Shown: positions 254-17,518 of the stretch, one piece after another
Layout of the letters: each line of letters opens with the position of its first letter
Position numbering within the stretch: position 1 is the stretch's first letter
Source of the DNA: DASVDK01 sp036381125 [NCBI: Thermodesulfobacteriota bacterium]
GTDB lineage: Bacteria > DASVDK01
Direction: 5' to 3'
Length of the DNA stretch: 18,142 nucleotides
Assembly (NCBI GenBank): GCA_036381125.1
Contig: DASVDK010000358.1
Span: forward strand, 1-18,142
Position numbers and translations under genes: made by a program
The notes under the pieces: generated by a model
Database searches by the model: none
What the model was told of the DNA's origin: nothing
What the model saw: the letters and a program-made list of their open reading frames with translations, nothing else

Positions 254-1102
254 GTGCCGTCGCCCGAACCGACCTACCTGCCGACGCGGGGCGGTCCGCT
301 CGACGTCGACCGCGCCTTCTACGATCGGCTGTCGCGCGACATCGCCGGCCGGACGCCGGTCGAGTCGTTCGTCGTCCCGATCCGCTCGGGCCGCGCCTGG
401 CCGCTGCGCGCCGGGCAGATGTGCCGCATCGTCACCATCGAGGCGGCGCAGGTGGCCGACCTCAACGCCTGGAACCTCCACAACCCGCGCGAGCGCTTCT
501 GGGCCGCCCGCACCCGCCAGCTCCAGCGGGCGCACGTCTCGACCTACGACCGCCTCTGGTCCACCCTCCCCTACCTCAGGCCGATGCTGACGATCACGAA
601 GGACTCGCTCGACTGGTACGGCGTCGACGACGACGGCGGCCGCTGCCACGGCCTCCTCGGCAGCCGCTGCGACCCCTACGTGAACCGGCTCCTCACCGGC
701 GAGTCGTTCGACTACCACTGCCACTCGAACCTCACCCGCGCCGTCCTGCCCTGGCGGCTCACCGAGCTCGACGTCCACGACGTGCTCAACGTCTTCCAGG
801 TCGAGGGGCTCACGCGCGACGGCGACCAGTACTTCATCAAGCCGAGCCCGGCGAGGCGGGGGGACGTGTTCGAGTTCTTCGCCGAGATCGACCTGCTCGT
901 GGCGATCTCGACCTGCCCCGGCGGCGACCTCTCCGTGCCGCTCTGGGGGCCCAACGCGGGCGACCCGCTCGCGGTCTGCCGCCCGCTCGGCGTCGAGATC
1001 TACGAGCCCGACCCCACGCTCCTCGCCGGCTGGTCCTCCCCCGCCCCGGCCGACTACCGCGGCAACCACGGGATGCCGATGCCCTTGCTCCCCCCATCGT
1101 AG
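254..1102 (+). CDS. DUF1989 family protein (urea carboxylase-associated type)
   Basis: This 282-residue protein starts at a GTG four bases after the upstream stop, suggesting translational coupling. It shows the DUF1989 pattern: an N-terminal beta-rich part ending in L-R-A-G-Q (about residues 51-55), then C139-D, H155-C156-H157-S-N-L, a D-V-L-N-V-F block (about 176-181), a P-S-P-A-R-R-G-D block (about 197-204) and I-S-T-C221-P. The conserved Cys and His residues are likely metal ligands. Members are often encoded beside urea carboxylase or allophanate hydrolase genes, and some are linked to metabolism of guanidine-type or carboxylated nitrogen compounds, but the reaction is not firmly known. 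Length is somewhat above the roughly 200-residue domain because of N- and C-terminal additions. The next gene is 138 nt away, so the transcription unit probably ends here. The family call is firm; the function is open. Confidence 0.85.
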   Translation: MPSPEPTYLPTRGGPLDVDRAFYDRLSRDIAGRTPVESFVVPIRSGRAWPLRAGQMCRIVTIEAAQVADLNAWNLHNPRERFWAARTRQLQRAHVSTYDRLWSTLPYLRPMLTITKDSLDWYGVDDDGGRCHGLLGSRCDPYVNRLLTGESFDYHCHSNLTRAVLPWRLTELDVHDVLNVFQVEGLTRDGDQYFIKPSPARRGDVFEFFAEIDLLVAISTCPGGDLSVPLWGPNAGDPLAVCRPLGVEIYEPDPTLLAGWSSPAPADYRGNHGMPMPLLPPS

Positions 1103-1240: not shown

Positions 1241-2194
1241 ATGAAGACACGTCTCGTCCTGGTCCTTGCCGCGCTGCTCCTCGCCCCGGCGCTGACGCTC
1301 TCCGCAACCCGTATTTCCATCGGGACCGGCTCGAGCGGCGGCGTCTACTTCTTCGTCGGCAACGCGATGACCTCGTTGCTCAACAAGCACATGGCCGGCC
1401 TCAACGCGACACCGGAGCCGGTGACCGGCTCGGCGCATGCGAGCAAGCTCGTCGACTCCGGTGACCTCGCACTCGCGCTCGCCGAGGTGGCGACGGCGTA
1501 CCACGGCTACCGCGGATCCCGGAAGGACTTCCCGAAGCCGCTCGAGAACATTCGCTTCGTCATGGGCGGCATGGCGAGCGGCCAGGCCCCGGTCGTCTGG
1601 GCCGACTCGCCCATCAAGTCCTGGGCGGACATCAAAGGGAAGCGGATCGCCACCAACTCGCCGGCGTCCCTGGCGATGGTCACGCCCCTCCTCGAAATGC
1701 ACGGGATCGAGATGAGCGACGTCGACCACAAGACGCTCAACTACACCGAGCAGGTCAGCGCGATGAAGGACGGCAACCTCGACGTGGCCTTCATGGCACC
1801 CGCGCCTCGCAACGCCAGCGTGATGGATCTCGGCGCCAGACGCGCGATCCGAATCCTCGGGCTCGCGCCCGACACGGCTAAGGAGTACGCCAGGCGCTAT
1901 CCGCACTGGTCGCCGATCACCCTGAAGGCCGGGACGTACGACGGGCAGAAGGCGGACGTCATCATGCCTGCCTACCACACGGCCGTCATCGCGAACAAGG
2001 ACGTCGATGCCGACCTGATCTACGGGATCGTCAAGACGGTGATCGAGCACAACAAGGAGTTCGGCGAGATGCACGAGAGCGGCAAGGAGTTCACCGTCGA
2101 GCGCACGCGAGACTTCCTCCGGCAGGAGATGGTGCCGGCGCCGTTCCACCCAGGGGCCGAGCGCTTCTGGCGCGAGAAGGGAGTCGTCAAATAG
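1241..2194 (+). CDS. TAXI family TRAP transporter solute-binding protein
   Basis: The 317-residue protein begins with a basic, hydrophobic signal peptide (residues 1 to about 22), then R-I-S-I-G-T-G-S-S-G-G-V-Y-F at about 24-37, the hallmark start of TAXI (TRAP-associated extracytoplasmic immunogenic) binding proteins. Later blocks (ligand-site region around V-T-G-S-A-H-A, D-I-K-G-K-R-I-A near 127-134, and a conserved C-terminal helix region) also fit. It would bind a small organic solute, often a carboxylate or amino acid, in the periplasm and deliver it to the fused membrane permease encoded next. Start choice is supported by GGAGGTG (1229-1235) just upstream of ATG 1241. It is the first gene after the AT-rich element and heads a probable operon with the permease and the Grd-like genes. 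The substrate cannot be read from the sequence; given the neighbours, an amine such as betaine, sarcosine or glycine is a guess. Confidence 0.93.
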   Translation: MKTRLVLVLAALLLAPALTLSATRISIGTGSSGGVYFFVGNAMTSLLNKHMAGLNATPEPVTGSAHASKLVDSGDLALALAEVATAYHGYRGSRKDFPKPLENIRFVMGGMASGQAPVVWADSPIKSWADIKGKRIATNSPASLAMVTPLLEMHGIEMSDVDHKTLNYTEQVSAMKDGNLDVAFMAPAPRNASVMDLGARRAIRILGLAPDTAKEYARRYPHWSPITLKAGTYDGQKADVIMPAYHTAVIANKDVDADLIYGIVKTVIEHNKEFGEMHESGKEFTVERTRDFLRQEMVPAPFHPGAERFWREKGVVK

Positions 2195-4141: not shown

Positions 4142-5425
4142 ATGCAGCTCGAGCTCCTCGGCTTCACGGTCCGCGACGTCCGGTTCGGCGCCCGCACGGA
4201 TCTCGCCGGCGGCGTGCTCACGGTCGACAAGGACGCCCTCGCGAGCCATCTCCTCGAGGACCCCGACCTCGCGGAGGTGCGGCTCGCGATCGCGCGCCCG
4301 GGCGACTCCACCCGCATCATCCACATCCTCGACGCCGTCGAGCCGCGCCTCAAGGTCAAGGGCGGGGGCGACTTCCCCGGCTTCCTGTCGACTCCGACGC
4401 CGGTCGGCGCCGGCGTGACGCACCGACTCGAGGGCGTCACCGTGCTGGTGACCGGCACGCTCTCCGGCGCCGCCGACAGCCAGGGACTCAAGGAGAGCAT
4501 CGTGGACATGTCCGGGCCAGCCGCCCGGTACAACCCGGTCTCCGGGAACGTCAACCTCGTGATCGAGGTCGCCGCGCGGCCCGGCGCCTCGCCCGTCGAG
4601 AGCGCCGCCGCGAGCCGCAAGGCCGCGCTGAAGGCCGCGGTCTACCTCGCCTCGCCGACGCGCGGGCTCACGCCGGATCGCCGGGAGTCCCTGGCGCTCC
4701 CGCCGGTGGACGGCGCACTGCCACGCATCGGGTACGTCATGCCCGCCATGAGCGAGGGCGAGCTCCACACGACCTTCTTCTACGGCCGGAGCGTGCAGAG
4801 CCTTCCGGCGCTGGTGCACCCGAACGAGATCCTCGACGGGGCGCTCGTGAGCGCGGACTACTGGATCGCCTGCCACAGGAGCCCTACCTACCTTTATCAG
4901 AACGAGCCGGTCATCCGCTCCCTCATCGCCAGGCACGGCCGCGACCTCGAGTTCGCAGGAGTCCTCCTCTGCCGCTGCCTCATCACCTCGCAGGACGAGA
5001 AGATGCGCCAGGCGAGCCAGACCGCCAAGGTCGCGCGCATGCTCGGTATCCGCGGCGCCGTCGTCACGATGTCCAACGGCGGGCACGCCTACCTCGATCA
5101 GATGCTCATCTGCAGGGAGCTCGAGCAGGCCGGCGTCGCCACCGTCCTCGGCGTGGACGAGTACTCGGATGCCGACGGGAGCGACTTCCCGCTCGTGACG
5201 ACCGTCCCCGAGGCGACCGCCGTCGTGAGCATGGGCAACCAGGAGCAGATCGTCGACTGCCCGGCGGTGGACACCGTTCTCGGGGGCACCGCGTTCCTCG
5301 CCGGCAACAGCTACGAGAAGGCGTTCGGTCAGGCGCCAGGGTCCGCGCTGTCGGTCGCGCTGCGACAGATCTACTGCTCCACGAACCAGCTCGGCTGGTC
5401 CACCCTCCGGGGTCGGGCATACTAG
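4142..5425 (+). CDS. grdE: Glycine/sarcosine/betaine reductase component B alpha/beta subunit-like protein (GrdE-like)
   Basis: The 427-residue protein matches the GrdE/GrdG/GrdI proprotein family along its length: an N-terminal M-x-L-E-L plus V-R-D-V-R-F-G block, R-P-G-D-S-T-R-I-I and E-P-R-L-K-V, G-G-G-D-F-P-G-F, D-M-S-G-P-A-A-R-Y-N-P, E-L-H-T-T-F-F-Y-G, I-L-D-G-A-L-V-S and Y-L-Y-Q-N-E-P-V-I-R. In characterised clostridial enzymes this protein is cleaved autocatalytically, creating a pyruvoyl group from a Cys that binds the amine substrate as a Schiff base. In my recollection of clostridial GrdE the matching segment reads G-N-C-V-S-A-C; here it is A-D239-Y-W-I-A-C244, so the first Cys and its Asn are absent and only C244 remains. 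Maturation may therefore differ. An AGGGG (4129-4133) eight bases before the ATG supports the start. The gene runs into grdB after an 11-base gap with AGGGGG overlapping its stop codon. Substrate is unassigned. Confidence 0.88.
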   Translation: MQLELLGFTVRDVRFGARTDLAGGVLTVDKDALASHLLEDPDLAEVRLAIARPGDSTRIIHILDAVEPRLKVKGGGDFPGFLSTPTPVGAGVTHRLEGVTVLVTGTLSGAADSQGLKESIVDMSGPAARYNPVSGNVNLVIEVAARPGASPVESAAASRKAALKAAVYLASPTRGLTPDRRESLALPPVDGALPRIGYVMPAMSEGELHTTFFYGRSVQSLPALVHPNEILDGALVSADYWIACHRSPTYLYQNEPVIRSLIARHGRDLEFAGVLLCRCLITSQDEKMRQASQTAKVARMLGIRGAVVTMSNGGHAYLDQMLICRELEQAGVATVLGVDEYSDADGSDFPLVTTVPEATAVVSMGNQEQIVDCPAVDTVLGGTAFLAGNSYEKAFGQAPGSALSVALRQIYCSTNQLGWSTLRGRAY

Positions 5426-5436
5426 GGGGCTCGCGC

Positions 5437-6750
5437 ATGTCGACGTTCCGCATCGTCCACTACCTGAACCAGTTCTTCGGCGGTCTCGGTGGGGAGGAGA
5501 AGGCGGATGCCGCCCCGACGCTCCGCGCGGGCCCCATCGGCCCCGGCGTCCTCCTGCACGACCTCTGCCGCGGGCAGGCGGAGGTCGCGGCCACCGTGAC
5601 GTGCGGCGACAACCGGATGGCCGAGCATCCGGCCGAGACGCTCCGCGCGGTGCTCGATCTCGTCCGTGAGGCGAAGCCCGACCTGCTGGTTGCCGGTCCG
5701 GCGTTCGGCTCGGGCCGCTACGGGCTCGCCTGCGCCGCCGTCTGCTCGGCCGCGCGCCAGGAGCTCGGCGTGCCGGCCGTCACGGCGATGTCGCCGGACA
5801 ACCCCGGCGCCGAGTCGCGTGGGGCGCACGTCATCGTCGCGATCAGCGGCCCCACGGCCTCCACGATGAAGGCCGACCTCGAGCGACTCGCCAGGCTCGC
5901 CGTGAAGATCGGCCGGCGCGAACCGCTCGGCGCGGCGGACGACGAGGGGTACCTCCCGAGTGGGCGTCGAGTCAACGAGTTCGGGACGAAGACCGGCGCC
6001 GAACGAATGGTCGAGATGCTGCTCCGGAAGGTGCGGGGAGAGCCGTTCGCGAGCGAGGTGGTCGTGCCGGCGTTCGAGCCGGTCCCGCCCGCGCCGCCCG
6101 TCCGGGACCTGAGCACGGCGACCCTGGCCGTCGTCACGACCTCCGGCCTGGTCGGCGCCGGCAACCCCGGGGGTGTGGAGTCCTGGCGGGCCACGAAGTG
6201 GGAGAAGTACGACATCTCCGGTCTCTCCGAGCTGTCGCCGGACGCGTTCACCTGCGTGCACGGCGGCTACGACACGCGCCACATTCGCGCGAATCCGAAC
6301 CGCGCCGTGCCTCTCGACGCCCTCCGTGCCTCGGAGCGAGAGGGCCGGATCGGCCGGCTGCACGACGTGCTCTACACGACGGTCGGCAACGTGATGCCGG
6401 TGCTGCGGGCGAGCCAGTTCGGGCGGGAGATCGCCGCGGAGCTCCGGAGCGCCGGCGTGGAGGCTGCCATCTTCACGGCGACCTGAGGGACCTGCAATCG
6501 TTGCGGGTCAACGATGGCGAAGGAGATCGAGCGAGTCGGAATCCCCGTGGCCTTCTGCACCGCGATCCCGGCGGTCCCCCTGTCCGTCGGCGTCTCGCGA
6601 ATCTTCCAGGGAAAGGCCGTGACCTGCCTGCTCGGCGACGCGTCGCTGCCGGCCGAGGCGGAGCGGTCGCTCCGCGCCCGGCTCACCGCCGGGGCGCTCG
6701 CGACGCTCACTCGCGAGGTGAACGAGCCGACCCTGTTCAGGGCGGATTGA
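5437..6750 (+). CDS. grdB: Glycine/sarcosine/betaine reductase component B selenoprotein (GrdB-like), UGA 6484-6486 read as selenocysteine
   Basis: The frame from ATG 5437 stops at TGA 6484, yet the same frame continues with full family similarity to 6750. Read through, it gives 437 residues, the size of clostridial GrdB. N-terminal blocks H-Y-L-N-Q-F-F-G-G-L-G-G-E-E, V-T-C-G-D-N and A-G-P-A-F-G-S-G-R-Y-G fit the family, as do N-P-G-A-E, G-N-P-G-G-V-E-S and T-V-G-N. The TGA falls at residue 350 in F-T-A-T-U-G-T-C-N-R-C-G-S-T-M, corresponding to the known U-x-x-C-x-x-C selenocysteine site; C353 and C356 follow. The C-terminal part I-E-R-V-G-I-P-V-A-F continues to the end region. Together with GrdE the protein forms component B, which binds the substrate amine and transfers its carboxymethyl group to the selenium of GrdA. 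AGGGGG (5424-5429) precedes the start. Sec insertion requires selA, selB, selC and selD elsewhere. An annotation ending at 6486 would be wrong. Confidence 0.93.
6487..6511 (+). promoter_or_regulatory. SECIS-like hairpin directly after the grdB UGA
   Basis: GACCTGCAA (6489-6497) pairs with TTGCGGGTC (6501-6509) in nine base pairs, one of them T-G, leaving loop TCG; opening the two A-T pairs enlarges the loop to AATCGTT with a G and a GU step. It begins three bases after the TGA, and the loop lies about 14 bases downstream, near where bacterial SECIS loops recruit SelB. The helix lies inside the coding sequence for T-C-N-R-C-G. The assignment is structural inference. Confidence 0.6.
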
Positions 6751-6763
6751 CGGAAGAGTCGAG

Positions 6764-7050
6764 GTGGGGAGCGTGGGCGAGCCGGTGATCGCGGCCGTCT
6801 CGCAGGTCCTCGCGCGCGCGCCGGGTCTGGTTCGCTACGGCTCTAGGACGAGCAGGGACCTCGCACGCCAGCCGGGGCTCTCCGAAACGCTGGAGAGGCA
6901 CCTTCTGCGATCGCGCGAGCCTGGTCCACCTCGACGAGAGCACGCTCGCCCGGGGCGCGGCTCGCCTGAGCGCGCGCGGCCTCGTCCGGCGCGAGGCGCT
7001 CGAGCGGCTCGGCGCCGATCGTCCGGAGACGATCGAGCGAGTCGCCGAAA
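6764..7050 (+). pseudogene. Decayed grdC-like gene (component C beta subunit), deleted and frameshifted
   Basis: From GTG 6764 (or GTG 6773) about 48 codons resemble the start of glycine/betaine reductase component C subunit GrdC: E-P-V-I-A-A-V-S-Q-V-L-A-R-A-P-G-L-V-R-Y-G-S, then a R-D-L-A-R-Q-P-G-L block and L-E-R-H-L. After about 6900 the similarity moves to frame 3 and encodes A-S-L-V-H-L-D-E-S-T-L-A-R-G, G-L-V-R-R-E-A-L-E-R-L and R-P-E-T-I-E-R-V-A, resembling a later segment of GrdC (about residues 95-145 in the family, by memory). The remaining several hundred residues are missing; grdA begins right after. Intact GrdC is about 500 residues and, with GrdD, converts Se-carboxymethyl-GrdA to acetyl phosphate. 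The alternative is an unrelated short protein, but the two shifted blocks make a pseudogene more likely. Confidence 0.65.
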
Positions 7051-7065
7051 GAGGAGGAGCACGGG

Positions 7066-7632
7066 ATGGATCTCAGAGGGAAGCGGGTGCTGGCGATCGG
7101 TGAACGCGACGGCGTGAACGGGACCGCGATCGAGGCCTGGGCGAAGAGCGCGGGCGCGGAGGTCCTCTACGTCGAAACCCAGTGCTTCGTCTGAACCGCC
7201 GCGGGCGCCATGGACCTCGAGGGTCAAGGTCGAATCAGGCGGCTCGTCGAGCAGGCAGGCACCGAGAACGTCGTCGCCATCCTCGGGGCCAACTCGGCCC
7301 CCGCCGTCGAGATGGCGGCCCTCGCGCTGAAGAGCGGCGATCCGAGCTACGCGGGCCCGCTGGCCGGCGTCTCGCTGGGGATCCCGGCGTATCACGTCCT
7401 CGAGCCCGAGATCACCGCGCAGGTCGATCCCGCGGTCTACGAGCGGGAACTCGCGCTGCCGGCGATGGCGATGGACCTCGCGGAGGTCGTCGGACCACTC
7501 AAGGCGATCCGGGGGTCGGACAGCCAGGATCGGCGCGGCCGAGCCAGGGGGTCCCCATGCGCCTCGACCTCGCGCGCCACGTCGTGCGCGCGCTCGAGCT
7601 CGCGGACCGGCCGAGGACGGACATCAGCATGA
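7066..7632 (+). CDS. grdA: Glycine reductase selenoprotein A (GrdA-like), UGA 7192-7194 read as selenocysteine
   Basis: An AGGAGG (7052-7057) eight bases upstream marks ATG 7066. The frame encodes D-L-R-G-K-R-V-L-A-I-G-E-R-D-G, then A-G-A-E-V-L-Y-V-E-T-Q-C-F-V, meets TGA at 7192 and continues T-A-A-G-A-M-D-L-E. This reproduces GrdA, whose C-x-x-U site (C-F-V-U-T-A-A-G-A-M-D-L-E) is nearly invariant; here Cys40 and Sec43. Downstream blocks G-D-P-S-Y-A-G-P-L-A-G-V, A-Y-H-V-L-E-P-E and A-V-Y-E-R also fit. GrdA is a small carrier that takes the carboxymethyl group from component B as a selenoether and is reoxidised to a mixed selenide-sulfide, normally reduced by thioredoxin. The family usually ends about residue 158; this frame runs on to 188 with unrelated-looking low-complexity residues across the next start at 7557, so the native stop may have been lost. 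The gene would be invisible to a standard caller before residue 44. Confidence 0.92.
7192..7227 (+). promoter_or_regulatory. SECIS-like hairpin after the grdA UGA
   Basis: GACC (7213-7216) and GGTC (7222-7225) enclose loop TCGAG about 25 bases after the start of the TGA at 7192, within the usual distance for a bacterial SECIS loop. The flanks GGACCT and GGGTCAA recur in the hairpin after the grdB TGA. The stem is short (4 bp plus a possible T-G), so support is moderate. Confidence 0.45.
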
Positions 7633-7796
7633 TCGGCCACGTCCCCGAGGCCGATCTCATGGCCAGTTCTTCGGTGGTCGCGGCGGCGAGGCACGCGCGG
7701 GCGGCGGCCTCGAGGTCCGCGAGGGGCCGTCGGGCCGGGGTTACGGCTCGAGCGGCATCTCCGTGACGACGCGGCCGTCGTCGGGACCGTCACGTA
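7557..7796 (+). pseudogene. Remnant of a second GrdE/GrdB-like pair, frameshifted and truncated
   Basis: ATG 7557, preceded by AGGGGG, begins M-R-L-D-L-A-R-H-V-V-R-A-L-E-L-A-D-R, which resembles a GrdE-type N-terminus. Similarity then changes frame: frame 2 encodes G-Q-F-F-G-G-R-G-G-E and L-E-V-R-E-G-P-S-G-R-G (about 7660-7740), the N-terminal block of GrdB-type proteins, and frame 1 next encodes L-E-R-H-L-R-D-D-A-A-V-V-G-T-V-T (about 7747-7794) with a TAG exactly where C-G-D-N would be expected. These pieces look like the beginnings of an E-type and a B-type gene joined by a deletion and then broken by frameshifts. The E-type part is the weaker match. A short unknown protein in frame 3 (62 codons to 7769) is the alternative. 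Confidence 0.5.
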
Positions 7797-7841
7797 GCAC
7801 GGGCCAGGGAGGCGAACCGCCTCGATCGAAAGGAGCATGCC

Positions 7842-8894
7842 ATGCGTCGTATCCAGGTGCTGCTCGGCTTTGCCCCCCTGCTCGTCGCCGCGCTCTGGTC
7901 GACCACGGTGGTCGGCCAGGGGCAGAGGGAGGTCGTGGTCATGAGCTGGGGCGGCGACTACGAGCGCAAGATGGCCGAGCTGATCGGTCCGGCGTTCGAG
8001 AAGGCCACCGGGTACAGGATCAGCTACGTCACGGCGGGCAGCTCTGCCGAGATGGTGGCCCGCGTCAAGGCGCAGGCCGACCGACCGCAGATCGACGTCG
8101 TGATCTGCGACGAGGGTCCCCAGCTCGTCGGCGGGGAGCTCTGGCAGCCGATCGAGGCGTCGTACCTCACGAACATGAGCCAGATGTACGACCTGGCACG
8201 CGTTCCCGAGAACCGTCGGGTCCGGCCCTTCGCCGGCGCGGTCACGCTTCTGTACAACACGAAGGTGTTCGCGGAGAAGGGCTGGGCGCCTCCGACCTCC
8301 TGGAACGACCTCTGGGATCCCAGGTACAAGGGTCACGTCATCACTCCCGAGGGGACCAGCCCGTACGCGTACGGCCTCACGGTGATCGCCGCTCGCCTCG
8401 AAGGCGGCGGCGAGCGAAACCTCGAGCCGGGATGGAGCAGGATGAAGTCCCTGGCACCGGCCATCCCGGTCTTCGCCACCCCGGCGTCGAAGTTCGGTGA
8501 CCTGTTCCGGCAGGGCACGGGGTGGATCGGCGTCGCCTCGGAGGGCTCGGCCCTGCGCCACCGCAAGGCGGGCCTGCCGATAGGCACGGCCTTCCCCAGG
8601 GAGGGCGCCCTCTTCGTGCCGGCGTCGGCCGCGGTGGTCGACGGCGGCCCGAACCCGGACGGCGCCAAGAAGTTCGTGAACCACCTGCTCACGCCCGAGG
8701 TGCAGCGCATCTGGGCCGAGAGCTTCGGCTGGGCGCCGCTCAACCGCCACGTGGATCTCCCGGCGGACATCGCGGCGCAGCTCACGTTCGGCGCCGAACG
8801 CGTGGCGCGCCTCCAGCAGGTCGACTGGGACGAGTACAACCGGGTGCTGCCCGAGTTCCTCGACCGCTGGAACCGCGAGATCGCCTCGCGTTGA
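7842..8894 (+). CDS. ABC transporter substrate-binding protein, polyamine (PotD)-type
   Basis: The 350-residue protein carries a signal peptide (residues 1 to about 26, ending near V-V-G-Q-G) and the extracellular solute-binding family 1/PotD pattern: V-V-V-M-S-W-G-G-D-Y at the mature N-terminus, an E-K-A-T-G-Y block, D-V-V-I-C-D, L-Y-N-T-K-V-F, a P-T-S-W-N-D-L-W-D-P-R-Y-K-G-H-V hinge block and P-x-G-A-L-F-V-P-A-S. It would deliver spermidine/putrescine-like cations, betaine-like amines or other small ligands to an ABC permease. AAAGGAG (7829-7835) supports the ATG. It is intact, but the ATPase and permease genes that follow are collapsed, so it is an orphan unless served by a transporter elsewhere. 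The exact ligand is not predictable. Confidence 0.9.
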   Translation: MRRIQVLLGFAPLLVAALWSTTVVGQGQREVVVMSWGGDYERKMAELIGPAFEKATGYRISYVTAGSSAEMVARVKAQADRPQIDVVICDEGPQLVGGELWQPIEASYLTNMSQMYDLARVPENRRVRPFAGAVTLLYNTKVFAEKGWAPPTSWNDLWDPRYKGHVITPEGTSPYAYGLTVIAARLEGGGERNLEPGWSRMKSLAPAIPVFATPASKFGDLFRQGTGWIGVASEGSALRHRKAGLPIGTAFPREGALFVPASAAVVDGGPNPDGAKKFVNHLLTPEVQRIWAESFGWAPLNRHVDLPADIAAQLTFGAERVARLQQVDWDEYNRVLPEFLDRWNREIASR

Positions 8895-8902
8895 CGGCGC
8901 CG

Positions 8903-9221
8903 TGTCCGCGGCCGAGCTGATCATCGAGGGGCTGACCAGGCGATACGGTCAGCTCCTCGCCCTCGACGGCGTGTCGCTCACGGTCCATCGAGGGGCGTGC
9001 GTGTCGGACGAGATCGAGCGGCGAGTGCGGTGCGCATCCTCCTCCTGGACGAACCGCTCTCGAACCTCGACGCCCGGGTGAGGGAGTCCATGCGGTTCGA
9101 GCTGCGCGAGATCCAGCAGCGTAGCGGGATCACGGCCCTCTTCGTGACCCACGACATCCAGGAGGCCTTCGTGCTCTCGGACCGCGTCGCCGTGATGTGC
9201 CGGGGTCGCATCGAGCAGGTG
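8903..9221 (+). pseudogene. Collapsed ABC transporter ATPase (PotA-like) missing Walker A and signature
   Basis: GTG 8903 opens in frame 2 with [26 protein letters not shown], the standard start of an ABC ATPase. The Walker A loop, Q-loop and signature that should follow are absent: after about 8985 the similarity resumes in frame 3 with [13 protein letters not shown] (Walker B and D-loop), [10 protein letters not shown] (H-loop) and D-R-V-A-V-M (from about 9030). The gene then passes without a break into permease sequence at about 9222. A protein made from 8997 could not bind ATP in the usual way. This is an internal deletion plus frameshift, or an assembly error. Confidence 0.8.
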
Positions 9222-9454
9222 CGGATCTCCGCGGTCGTCACGGCCGTCTCGCTGGTGGTCGGCTACCCCGCGGCCTGTTTCCGCTGGACGCTGCCGCCGA
9301 TGGCCCGCGCCCTCATGATCCTGGCCTATCTCTCCCCGTCGCTTGTGAGCGTCGTCGTCAAGGCGTACGGCTCGACGGTCCTGGTCGCTCTCTCGTTCGG
9401 CCTGTCCTCGTGCTCGAGCGCCTGGTCGGTCTGCGTCGTCCGTTCGACGCGTGA
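9222..9454 (+). pseudogene. Truncated ABC transporter permease remnant (PotB-like)
   Basis: Joined in frame 3 to the ATPase remnant is a membrane segment, [17 protein letters not shown] followed by [20 protein letters not shown], which matches the middle helices of spermidine/putrescine-type permeases. Similarity then appears to slip to frame 2, where [13 protein letters not shown] fits the next part of such permeases before TGA 9452. Both the start and the last helices of a normal, roughly 280-residue permease are missing. Confidence 0.65.
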
Positions 9455-9477
9455 CACGCGGCCACCGGAGGCGGCTG

Positions 9478-9506
9478 AAATGTATAACTTAATTTTATAT
9501 TTGACA
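9478..9506 (+). promoter_or_regulatory. AT-rich regulatory element, copy 2 (candidate GntR operator/promoter)
   Basis: Starting 58 bases before the GntR ATG, an AT-only-looking run contains an imperfect palindrome (9478-9502, 9 of 12 half-site positions paired) and ends in ATTTTATATTTGACA. It matches copy 1 at 1162-1190 in 22 of 29 positions, including TTGACA and a -10-like hexamer (TATAAC here, TAGAAT there). No good -10 lies 16-18 bases after TTGACA, so operator function is favoured over a plain promoter. Autoregulation by the GntR protein is an inference from position. Confidence 0.6.
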
Positions 9507-16272: not shown

Positions 16273-16754
16273 CGACCATTCGCCTCACGGTGAACGGCGA
16301 GGCGCGCGAGGCGCAGGTGGACCCGCGCACCACCCTGCTCCACTTCCTGCGGGAGGCGCTCCACCTCACCGGCACCAAGGAGTCGTGCGCCGAGGGGGAG
16401 TGCGGCGCCTGCACGGTCTGGCTCGACGGGCGGACGGTGAACGCCTGCCTGGTCTTCGCCGTCGAGGCCGACGGGCGCGAGGTCACGACCATCGAGGGCC
16501 TGCGGAGCGGCCGGGCCCGGCCGCTCATCGAGGCGCTCGCCGCCCTGGGCGGGGTACAGTGCGGGTTCTGCGTCCCGGGCATCGTCATGTCGGCCGCGAA
16601 GCTGCTCGAGACGACGCCGAACCCCACTCGCGAGGACGTTCTCGTCGGGCTCTCGGGCAACCTCTGCCGGTGCACCGGGTACCAGAAGATCATCGAGGCC
16701 ATTCTGACCGTGGCGCACGCCCCCGCGGCGGCGCCTGGTGGAGACCGTTCATGA
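16269..16754 (+). CDS. Molybdenum hydroxylase 2Fe-2S small subunit (CoxS-like)
   Basis: The 161-residue protein carries two [2Fe-2S] sites in the family order: plant-type C40, C45, C48 and C60 (E-S-C-A-E-G-E-C-G-A-C...N-A-C), and the C-terminal C98-G-F-C101 with C133-R-C135. GTG 16269 is chosen because GGAGGT (16258-16263) lies six bases upstream and the start overlaps the large-subunit stop as GTGA. It relays electrons from the molybdenum centre to the FAD subunit. Length is typical. Confidence 0.94.
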   Translation: MTTIRLTVNGEAREAQVDPRTTLLHFLREALHLTGTKESCAEGECGACTVWLDGRTVNACLVFAVEADGREVTTIEGLRSGRARPLIEALAALGGVQCGFCVPGIVMSAAKLLETTPNPTREDVLVGLSGNLCRCTGYQKIIEAILTVAHAPAAAPGGDRS

Positions 16755-17518
16755 CCCTTCGCATCGACTTCAACTCCGACATGGGCGAGTCGTTCGGCCA
16801 GTTCAAGATGGGCGACGACGAGGCGATCCTCGATCACGTCTCGTCGGCCAACCTCGCCTGCGGCTGGCACGGCGGCGACCCGCTCACCATGCGCAGGACC
16901 GTCTTCATGGCGGTCAAGAAGGGGGTCAACGTCGGCGCCCACCCGAGCTACCCGGACCTCATGGGCTTCGGGCGGCGCGTCATGCAGCTCACGCCGGAGG
17001 AGGCGCACAACTACATGGTCTACCAGCTCGGCGCCCTTGCCGCGTTCTGCAAGGCGGCCGGCACGACCATGCAGCACGTGAAGCCCCACGGCGCCCTCTT
17101 CAACGCCGCCCAGGACGACCCGGTCCTCGCCGAGGGGCTCGTCACGGGCATCAAGGAGGTCGACCCGAAGCTCATCGTGGTCGCCCTGCCCGGCTCCGAG
17201 GTCGACAAGGCCGCCACGAGGATCGGCCTCAAGGTGGCCCGCGAGGGCTTCGCCGACCGGGAGTACACCGACGACGGCCGGCTCATGCCGCGCACGGTGA
17301 AGGGCTCGGTCATCCACGACCCGAAGCGGATCGCCGATCGGGTCATCCAGATGGTGAAGGGCAGGCTCGTCGCGATGAGCGGCAAGCCCCTGGACGTCGA
17401 GGTGCAGACCATCTGCCTGCACAGCGACACGCCGGGCGCAGGCGACCTGGCACGAACCATCCGGAGCGCCGTCGAGGCCGCCGGCGTCCGGGTGACTCCC
17501 ATGCGGGAACTGGTCTAG
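16751..17518 (+). CDS. pxpA: LamB/YcsF family protein, 5-oxoprolinase subunit A-like (PxpA)
   Basis: The 255-residue protein matches PxpA/YcsF throughout: D-F-N-S-D-M-G-E-S-F-G near the N-terminus (about 6-16), A-C-G-W-H40-G-G-D-P, N-V-G-A-H64-P-S-Y-P-D, H-V-K111-P-H113-G-A-L-F-N and E-G-F-A-D-R-E-Y-T-D-D-G-R-L. In E. coli and Bacillus, PxpA works with PxpB and PxpC to open 5-oxoproline using ATP; YcsF-type proteins are also found in other lactam or amide pathways. ATG 16751 overlaps the preceding stop as ATGA. Its membership in the molybdenum-hydroxylase operon suggests that a cyclic amide formed by hydroxylation might be its substrate, which is inference. A PxpC-like gene ends at base 249 of the window, but no PxpB is seen here. 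Confidence 0.93.
   Translation: MTLRIDFNSDMGESFGQFKMGDDEAILDHVSSANLACGWHGGDPLTMRRTVFMAVKKGVNVGAHPSYPDLMGFGRRVMQLTPEEAHNYMVYQLGALAAFCKAAGTTMQHVKPHGALFNAAQDDPVLAEGLVTGIKEVDPKLIVVALPGSEVDKAATRIGLKVAREGFADREYTDDGRLMPRTVKGSVIHDPKRIADRVIQMVKGRLVAMSGKPLDVEVQTICLHSDTPGAGDLARTIRSAVEAAGVRVTPMRELV

What the first reader, a model, noticed from the sequence alone, without database searches (positions are those of the whole stretch)
7192..7194. A second selenoprotein: GrdA with Sec43 in a C-F-V-U context
The small ORF from ATG 7066 has a perfect AGGAGG site, but it ends at UGA after 42 residues unless read through. The join restores the near-invariant C-x-x-U-T-A-A-G-A-M-D-L-E signature of GrdA. Two recoded genes of the same system within 700 bases greatly strengthen both calls. 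Standard annotation would miss the first part and mislabel the rest.
Basis: partly seen in the sequence, partly recalled or inferred. Interest (0 to 1): 0.9.

Follow-up and report, generated by a model that had tools for sequence, protein, structure and literature searches.

The report
Selenocysteine glycine-reductase gene, partner gene eroded
The stop codon is, as claimed, a selenocysteine codon in the gene for glycine-reductase selenoprotein A, a well-known protein, but it sits in a locus whose energy-harvesting partner gene seems reduced to fragments.

Summary
An ORF with an AGGAGG site starts at ATG 7066 and meets TGA at 7192-7194; both sides match GrdA separately in the same frame (1.3e-11 and 4.7e-34; whole 8.5e-54). 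In a 299-genome sample all 101 near-full-length GrdA matches carry exactly one TGA. GrdB next door has its own Sec codon at 6484-6486. So this is a new member of a textbook selenoprotein pair.

(1) No intact grdC was found: the grdB-grdA gap holds two collinear, frame-shifted GrdC-like pieces, low-scoring but unmatched by 1000 shuffles and 614 overlapping control stretches. A grdD-like piece is weak. (2) grdA has no stop at the usual place and runs about 38 codons on with non-coding composition. (3) GrdE lacks the Asn-Cys that forms the pyruvoyl group, as reported for betaine and fluoroacetate subunits.

The host's Sec machinery could not be tested: no genome is held. SECIS tests did not discriminate. 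Most likely: a Sec-dependent reductase with an unassigned substrate, using grdCD elsewhere or beginning to decay.

The parts
4142..5425 (+). grdE-like gene (427 aa), substrate subunit of protein B; lacks the S-G-N-C pyruvoyl site (here SADYWIACH; the second conserved Cys is kept)
   Evidence: PF09338 1.4e-111; alignments
5437..6750 (+). grdB-like gene (437 aa read through), selenoprotein B
   Evidence: TIGR01918 446 bits; both halves match separately; 12 of 12 GrdB relatives compared have TGA at the aligned residue 350
6484..6486 (+). TGA read as Sec350 of GrdB, in U-G-T-C-N-R-C
6782..6874 (+). grdC remnant piece 1, like GrdC profile positions 2-33 (low score)
6906..7049 (+). grdC remnant piece 2 in another frame, like GrdC profile positions 105-153 (low score)
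7052..7057 (+). AGGAGG ribosome-binding site of grdA
7066..7632 (+). grdA ORF read through the TGA (188 codons); homology ends near 7515, the last ~38 codons look non-coding in this frame
7192..7194 (+). TGA read as Sec43 of GrdA
7575..7673 (+). possible grdD remnant (GrdD profile positions 37-71), weak
   Evidence: 3 of 1000 shuffles but 8 of 614 control stretches score as high
254..1102 (+). DUF1989 protein upstream (family that includes carboxyguanidine deiminases); membership in the same operon not shown
   Evidence: PF09347 6.1e-48
1241..2194 (+). TAXI-family TRAP solute-binding protein upstream
   Evidence: TIGR02122 205.7 bits
2320..4083 (+). fused TRAP permease upstream
   Evidence: TIGR02123 605.9 bits

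Best explanation
7066-7632 is grdA, coding for the small selenoprotein A of a glycine-reductase-type complex, and TGA 7192-7194 is its Sec43 codon. Together with grdE (4142-5425) and the selenoprotein gene grdB (5437-6750, Sec350) it forms a selenium-dependent reductase: protein B (GrdE+GrdB) binds a substrate with an activated alpha-carbon bond, the GrdB selenolate attacks it, and the carboxymethyl-type group is passed to Sec43 of GrdA. In the known system protein C (GrdC/GrdD) then releases acetyl phosphate. Shown here: gene identities, the two Sec codons, loss of the pyruvoyl Asn-Cys in GrdE, and GrdC-like fragments instead of an intact grdC at this locus. Inferred: the chemistry, Sec insertion, and that intact grdCD, if the system still works, lie elsewhere in the genome. 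The missing pyruvoyl site suggests a substrate other than glycine or sarcosine.
For: GrdA match across the TGA and on each side alone; family-wide TGA at this place; GrdB read-through, with TGA at aligned residue 350 in 12 of 12 GrdB genes from 11 loci; E-B-A in one direction. In 299 genomes of one phylum, 87 of 90 with a GrdA match also have a SelA match (E up to 0.001), against 122 of 209 without; both genomes behind the scan's relatives have a tRNA-Sec over the cut-off (2 of 2). GrdE lacks the Asn-Cys kept by 33 of 39 distinct sequences compared (30 of the 39 are the window's own best matches, not a random sample). The GrdC-like pair is reached by 0 of 1000 shuffles and 0 of 614 control stretches.
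Against: No host genome, so no SelA/SelB/SelD/tRNA-Sec test. SECIS: by a simple hairpin rule 1997 of 3436 ordinary codons do as well as the grdA site and 1459 of 3436 as well as the grdB site, and only 24 of 42 relatives meet the rule; the consensus fold of 40 sites gives a 2-pair helix only. The grdA stop is not at the usual place, and a truncated grdC raises the chance that the operon is decaying. The GrdC-like pieces score low (3.1 and -0.3 bits), were first noticed by eye before the profile was run, and are not seen by the NCBIfam or Pfam models. Three of the 90 GrdA genomes show no SelA (G168, G258, G299).
Confidence: 0.85

Rival explanations
1. The whole locus is a decaying relic: grdC (and perhaps grdD) are already deleted, grdA has lost its own stop, and grdE, grdB and grdA are still open only because decay is recent. 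The Sec codons are real but the pathway no longer runs.
For: GrdC-like fragments; grdA tail without coding composition; of the ABC ATPase downstream only positions 147-216 of 353 of its best model are matched. In the sampled phylum GrdA without GrdC is rare: 3 of 90 genomes, of which one has only a weak GrdA fragment (G063), one has GrdD pieces that run into contig ends (G176), and one lacks both by these searches (G104).
Against: About 1,010 codons of grdE, grdB and the homologous part of grdA carry no stop or frame break apart from the two Sec TGAs. G246 has GrdE, GrdB and GrdA in one cluster and grdC and grdD on another contig, so a cluster without C is not dead by itself.
Confidence: 0.3
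2. The gaps in grdC and the ABC genes are assembly or binning artefacts of a metagenome contig; the real operon is complete.
For: No genome is held for the window, so its quality is unknown; more than one gene within 3 kb looks cut.
Against: The long genes on either side are intact, and missing stretches of tens to over a hundred residues are not typical sequencing errors (inference).
Confidence: 0.12
3. The TGA is an ordinary stop: a 42-aa peptide followed by an unrelated ORF from ATG 7210.
For: Under table 11 the frame does stop there, and an ATG in the same frame follows at 7210.
Against: Both sides match one family in one frame with a single position between them; relatives carry TGA there.
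Confidence: 0.02

Closest known systems
GrdA, selenoprotein A of glycine/sarcosine/betaine reductase (PF04723, NF040748)
   Same: Length of the conserved part, C-F-V-U-T-A-A-G-A-M-D-L-E, Sec at the same column, 44-53% identity to five relatives
   Different: No stop at the usual end; neighbouring grdC is only fragments
GrdE/GrdG (pyruvoyl proproteins of protein B)
   Same: Full-length PF09338 match; 35-39% identity to the five compared, up to 42% in the sampled phylum
   Different: S-G-N-C replaced by S-A-D-Y; the second Cys of the motif is kept
GrdI, betaine-reductase type subunit (Enterococcus gilvus, L010)
   Same: Also lacks the Asn-Cys; next group in a small unrooted tree (0.957)
   Different: 32% identity only; its site is SGSF; the window groups with L077 (G246) and L100 (G207) at 0.998
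Fluoroacetate reductase FarE/FarB (Cloacibacillus porcorum MFA1; PMC10838667, passages seen)
   Same: Protein B alpha subunit said to lack the pyruvoyl cysteines, beside a GrdB-type selenoprotein
   Different: Window scores 161.6 bits against the FarE cut-off of 675; window GrdB keeps a C-x-x-C, which FarB is said to lack

Membership tests
GrdA selenoprotein A | Full-length match to the family model above its cut-off | tested here: met
   NF040748 181.6 bits, cut-off 130, residues 3-150
GrdA selenoprotein A | In-frame UGA in the C-x-x-U motif | tested here: met
GrdA selenoprotein A | Selenocysteine machinery in the host | not testable with these tools
   No host genome held; none among the window's genes identified, no tRNA found
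GrdA selenoprotein A | Bacterial SECIS hairpin behind the UGA | tested here: inconclusive
   Rule (recalled) satisfied, but more than half of ordinary codons of this GC-rich DNA do as well (1997 of 3436); no consensus helix beyond 2 pairs
Glycine reductase complex | GrdB selenoprotein with U-x-x-C-x-x-C | tested here: met
   UGTCNRC at 350-356
Glycine reductase complex | GrdE proprotein with the Asn-Cys that becomes the pyruvoyl group | tested here: not met
   SADYWIACH in place of SGNCVSACD
Glycine reductase complex | Protein C (GrdC and GrdD) making acetyl phosphate | tested here: inconclusive
   Not intact in the window, only fragments; the rest of the genome could not be searched
Fluoroacetate reductase FarE | Score above the NF053623 cut-off | tested here: not met
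   161.6 against 675 bits
Sarcosine reductase GrdG/GrdF | Score above the NF040793/NF040794 cut-offs | tested here: not met
   265 against 780 and 438.6 against 800 bits
Betaine reductase GrdH | Score above the NF040795 cut-off | tested here: not met
   407.1 against 775 bits
Glycine reductase GrdB | Score above the TIGR01917 cut-off | tested here: not met
   398.6 against 602.2 bits; the broader TIGR01918 is met, 446.3 against 65.45

The most novel reading that the evidence does not exclude
The window belongs to a so far unnamed branch of pyruvoyl-less protein B (GrdE/GrdB, with G246:C15 and G207:C54) that reduces an uncharacterised, perhaps guanidino- or otherwise nitrogen-rich substrate, and here GrdA works without a local protein C, handing its selenium-bound group to a different acceptor than the acetyl-phosphate-forming GrdC/GrdD.
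Probability: 0.1. Interest if true: 0.65.

Novelty: new member of a known kind. Interest (0 to 1): 0.3.

Why it matters
GrdA is a diagnostic selenoprotein: a 2006 survey set it apart as the family with no known Cys-containing homologs (PMC1794560, passage), so finding it in a 71% G+C contig marks a Sec-using lineage if the machinery is confirmed. The missing pyruvoyl site and the eroded grdC would show either a differently wired selenium reductase or a snapshot of its loss.

Tried and rejected
SECIS by single folds, hairpin rule and consensus fold: no discrimination. Rfam over the window at gathering score: 0 matches. Solved structures by sequence: none at 0.001 for GrdA or GrdB. Host identification: the genome scan gave only 2 relatives, at 52 and 51%; plasmid tblastn gave hits under 60% only; viral contigs gave none (one of the two patterns had C for Sec and could not match a TGA). 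GrdC by plain tblastn with two GrdC sequences showed nothing in 6751-7065 among the 30 rows printed (one row, E 1.7, falls on the grdD-like piece at 7581-7634); only the profile of 33 sequences did, and NCBIfam and Pfam scans of the pieces gave no GrdC hit. The grdD remnant did not hold up against control stretches (8 of 614). The GrdE branch (window, L077, L100) is not confirmed by the GrdB tree, which is unresolved there (0.332). FarE membership rejected. Papers: PMC10838667, PMC13188914, PMC1794560 and PMC11271267 were seen in passages only; other papers only as search listings.

Full report
What is there. The ORF at 7066 has AGGAGG at 7052-7057 and meets TGA at 7192-7194 after 42 codons. 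Read as Sec it gives C-F-V-U-T-A-A-G-A-M-D-L-E. Pfam GRDA matches at 3.9e-52 and NCBIfam NF040748 at 181.6 bits over a cut-off of 130. The front part alone gives 1.3e-11 (model 1-40) and the part behind the TGA 4.7e-34 (model 42-148) in the same frame. Codon-position G+C is coding-like on both sides. This cannot reasonably be chance.

Family evidence. In 299 genomes of the phylum of G002 (Bacillota by the record titles of L001 and L002) a GrdA match was found in 90, in two of them (G063, G141) only as fragments; of 110 matches, 101 span at least 136 of 147 positions and each of these has exactly one TGA (counted by eye; 9 fragments left out). In each of 41 loci examined there is a C-F-V-TGA site (42 sites; L002 and L013 are one gene). 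[quoted passage not shown] 87 of 90 GrdA genomes have a SelA match against 122 of 209 others; the three without are G168, G258 and G299.

GrdB and GrdE. 5437-6750 is GrdB with TGA 6484-6486 at Sec350 in UGTCNRC; both halves match separately, and 12 of 12 GrdB genes in 11 loci have TGA at the aligned residue. 4142-5425 is GrdE-like, but SADYWIACH replaces SGNCVSACD: the first Cys is gone, the second kept. Of 39 distinct aligned sequences, 33 keep the Asn-Cys; the 6 without are the window, L010 (betaine type), L077, L100, L108 and L110 (30 of the 39 were chosen as the window's best matches). PMC10838667 (passages) says FarE lacks the two cysteines needed for a pyruvoyl group, like the betaine subunit GrdI. 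In a small tree the window groups with L077 (G246) and L100 (G207) at 0.998, next to the betaine type at 0.957. The GrdB tree neither confirms nor excludes that group (0.332). The window passes none of the glycine, sarcosine, betaine or fluoroacetate subtype models, so the substrate is open.

Context of the relatives. G246:C15 has the GrdE-GrdB pair with GrdA about 4 kb away, a BMP-type substrate-binding protein (91.6 bits, below its cut-off), transporter genes named by reading their translations, an amidohydrolase and a creatininase-like gene (48.6 bits, below its cut-off), while its grdC and grdD are on another contig. In the window the neighbours are a DUF1989 gene and a TAXI-TRAP transporter. 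DUF1989 includes carboxyguanidine deiminases (PMC11271267, passage). A nitrogen-rich or guanidino substrate is therefore a guess, no more.

Protein C. I noticed a GrdC-like start by eye and then tested it. A profile of 33 GrdC sequences gives its two best window matches, in two frames and in the right order, in the 315 bases between grdB and grdA: positions 2-33 at 6782-6874 and 105-153 at 6906-7049. Scores are low (-0.3 and 3.1 bits), but none of 1000 dinucleotide shuffles and none of 614 overlapping stretches from the rest of the window, both strands, reaches the single score or the pair. The frame with a roughly coding G+C pattern switches at the same place. tblastn with two single GrdC sequences (rows printed) and the public models do not see it. 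A GrdD-like piece at 7575-7673 is reached by 3 of 1000 shuffles but by 8 of 614 control stretches, so it stays open. Crossed controls (GrdC on the grdD gap, GrdD on the grdC gap) were reached by 56 and 88 of 1000 shuffles. In the sampled phylum GrdA without GrdC occurred in 3 of 90 genomes and GrdC without GrdA in none (using GrdC matches below 1e-50; 87 genomes, 84 of them over the curated cut-off); of the three, G063 has only a weak GrdA fragment, G176 has GrdD pieces running into contig ends, and G104 shows neither C nor D.

The end of grdA. Homology stops near 7515, yet the frame stays open to TGA 7630; the stretch 7513-7629 has G+C 0.56/0.92/0.79 against 0.74/0.48/0.89 for the body. Of the ABC ATPase downstream only positions 147-216 of 353 of its best model are matched; an N-terminal-like piece before it is my reading and is not seen by Pfam. 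The stretch from about 6750 to 9500, apart from grdA and the solute-binding gene, therefore looks eroded, or misassembled.

How it most likely works. By established knowledge of the family (PMC13188914 passages, and recall), GrdB attacks the substrate, GrdA Sec43 takes the carboxymethyl group, and protein C releases acetyl phosphate. Gene identities and Sec codons are shown; chemistry and insertion are inferred; SECIS is inconclusive; the Sec machinery of the host is untested.

Verdict. It is an ordinary member of a known kind, in a less ordinary, probably incomplete operon. Interest 0.3.

Noticed in passing
8905-9452: ABC ATPase of which only model positions 147-216 of 353 are matched, with an N-terminal-like piece before it and a permease-like stub behind it read by eye only (no Pfam hit); the solute-binding gene before it (7842-8894) is intact.
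   Followed up: partly
4142-5425 with L077 and L100: A branch of GrdE-like proteins without the pyruvoyl Asn-Cys, in varied neighbourhoods (creatininase-like and amidohydrolase genes in G246; an ORF that reads like aldehyde dehydrogenase in G207; DUF1989 and TRAP in the window); L077 and the window, the two scanned, pass no public subtype model.
   Followed up: partly
L108 (G104:C20): GrdE, GrdB and GrdA together in a genome with no real GrdC or GrdD match (weak 8.5e-5 and 6.5e-5 only).
   Followed up: partly
1-249 and 16385-17518: End of a carboxyltransferase-like ORF (weak, below cut-off) and a LamB/YcsF gene, which recall 5-oxoprolinase parts, at opposite ends of the window.
   Followed up: no
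L107 12120-12451 (G246:C15): A second, broken grdA copy (one TGA and two TAA inside) near an intact one.
   Followed up: no
hit H23 (MT838886.1): A 4.8 kb record labelled 'Bacteriophage sp.' encodes a relative of nearly the whole front part of GrdB (44.4% identity, query residues 3-349), probably a mislabelled bacterial fragment.
   Followed up: no
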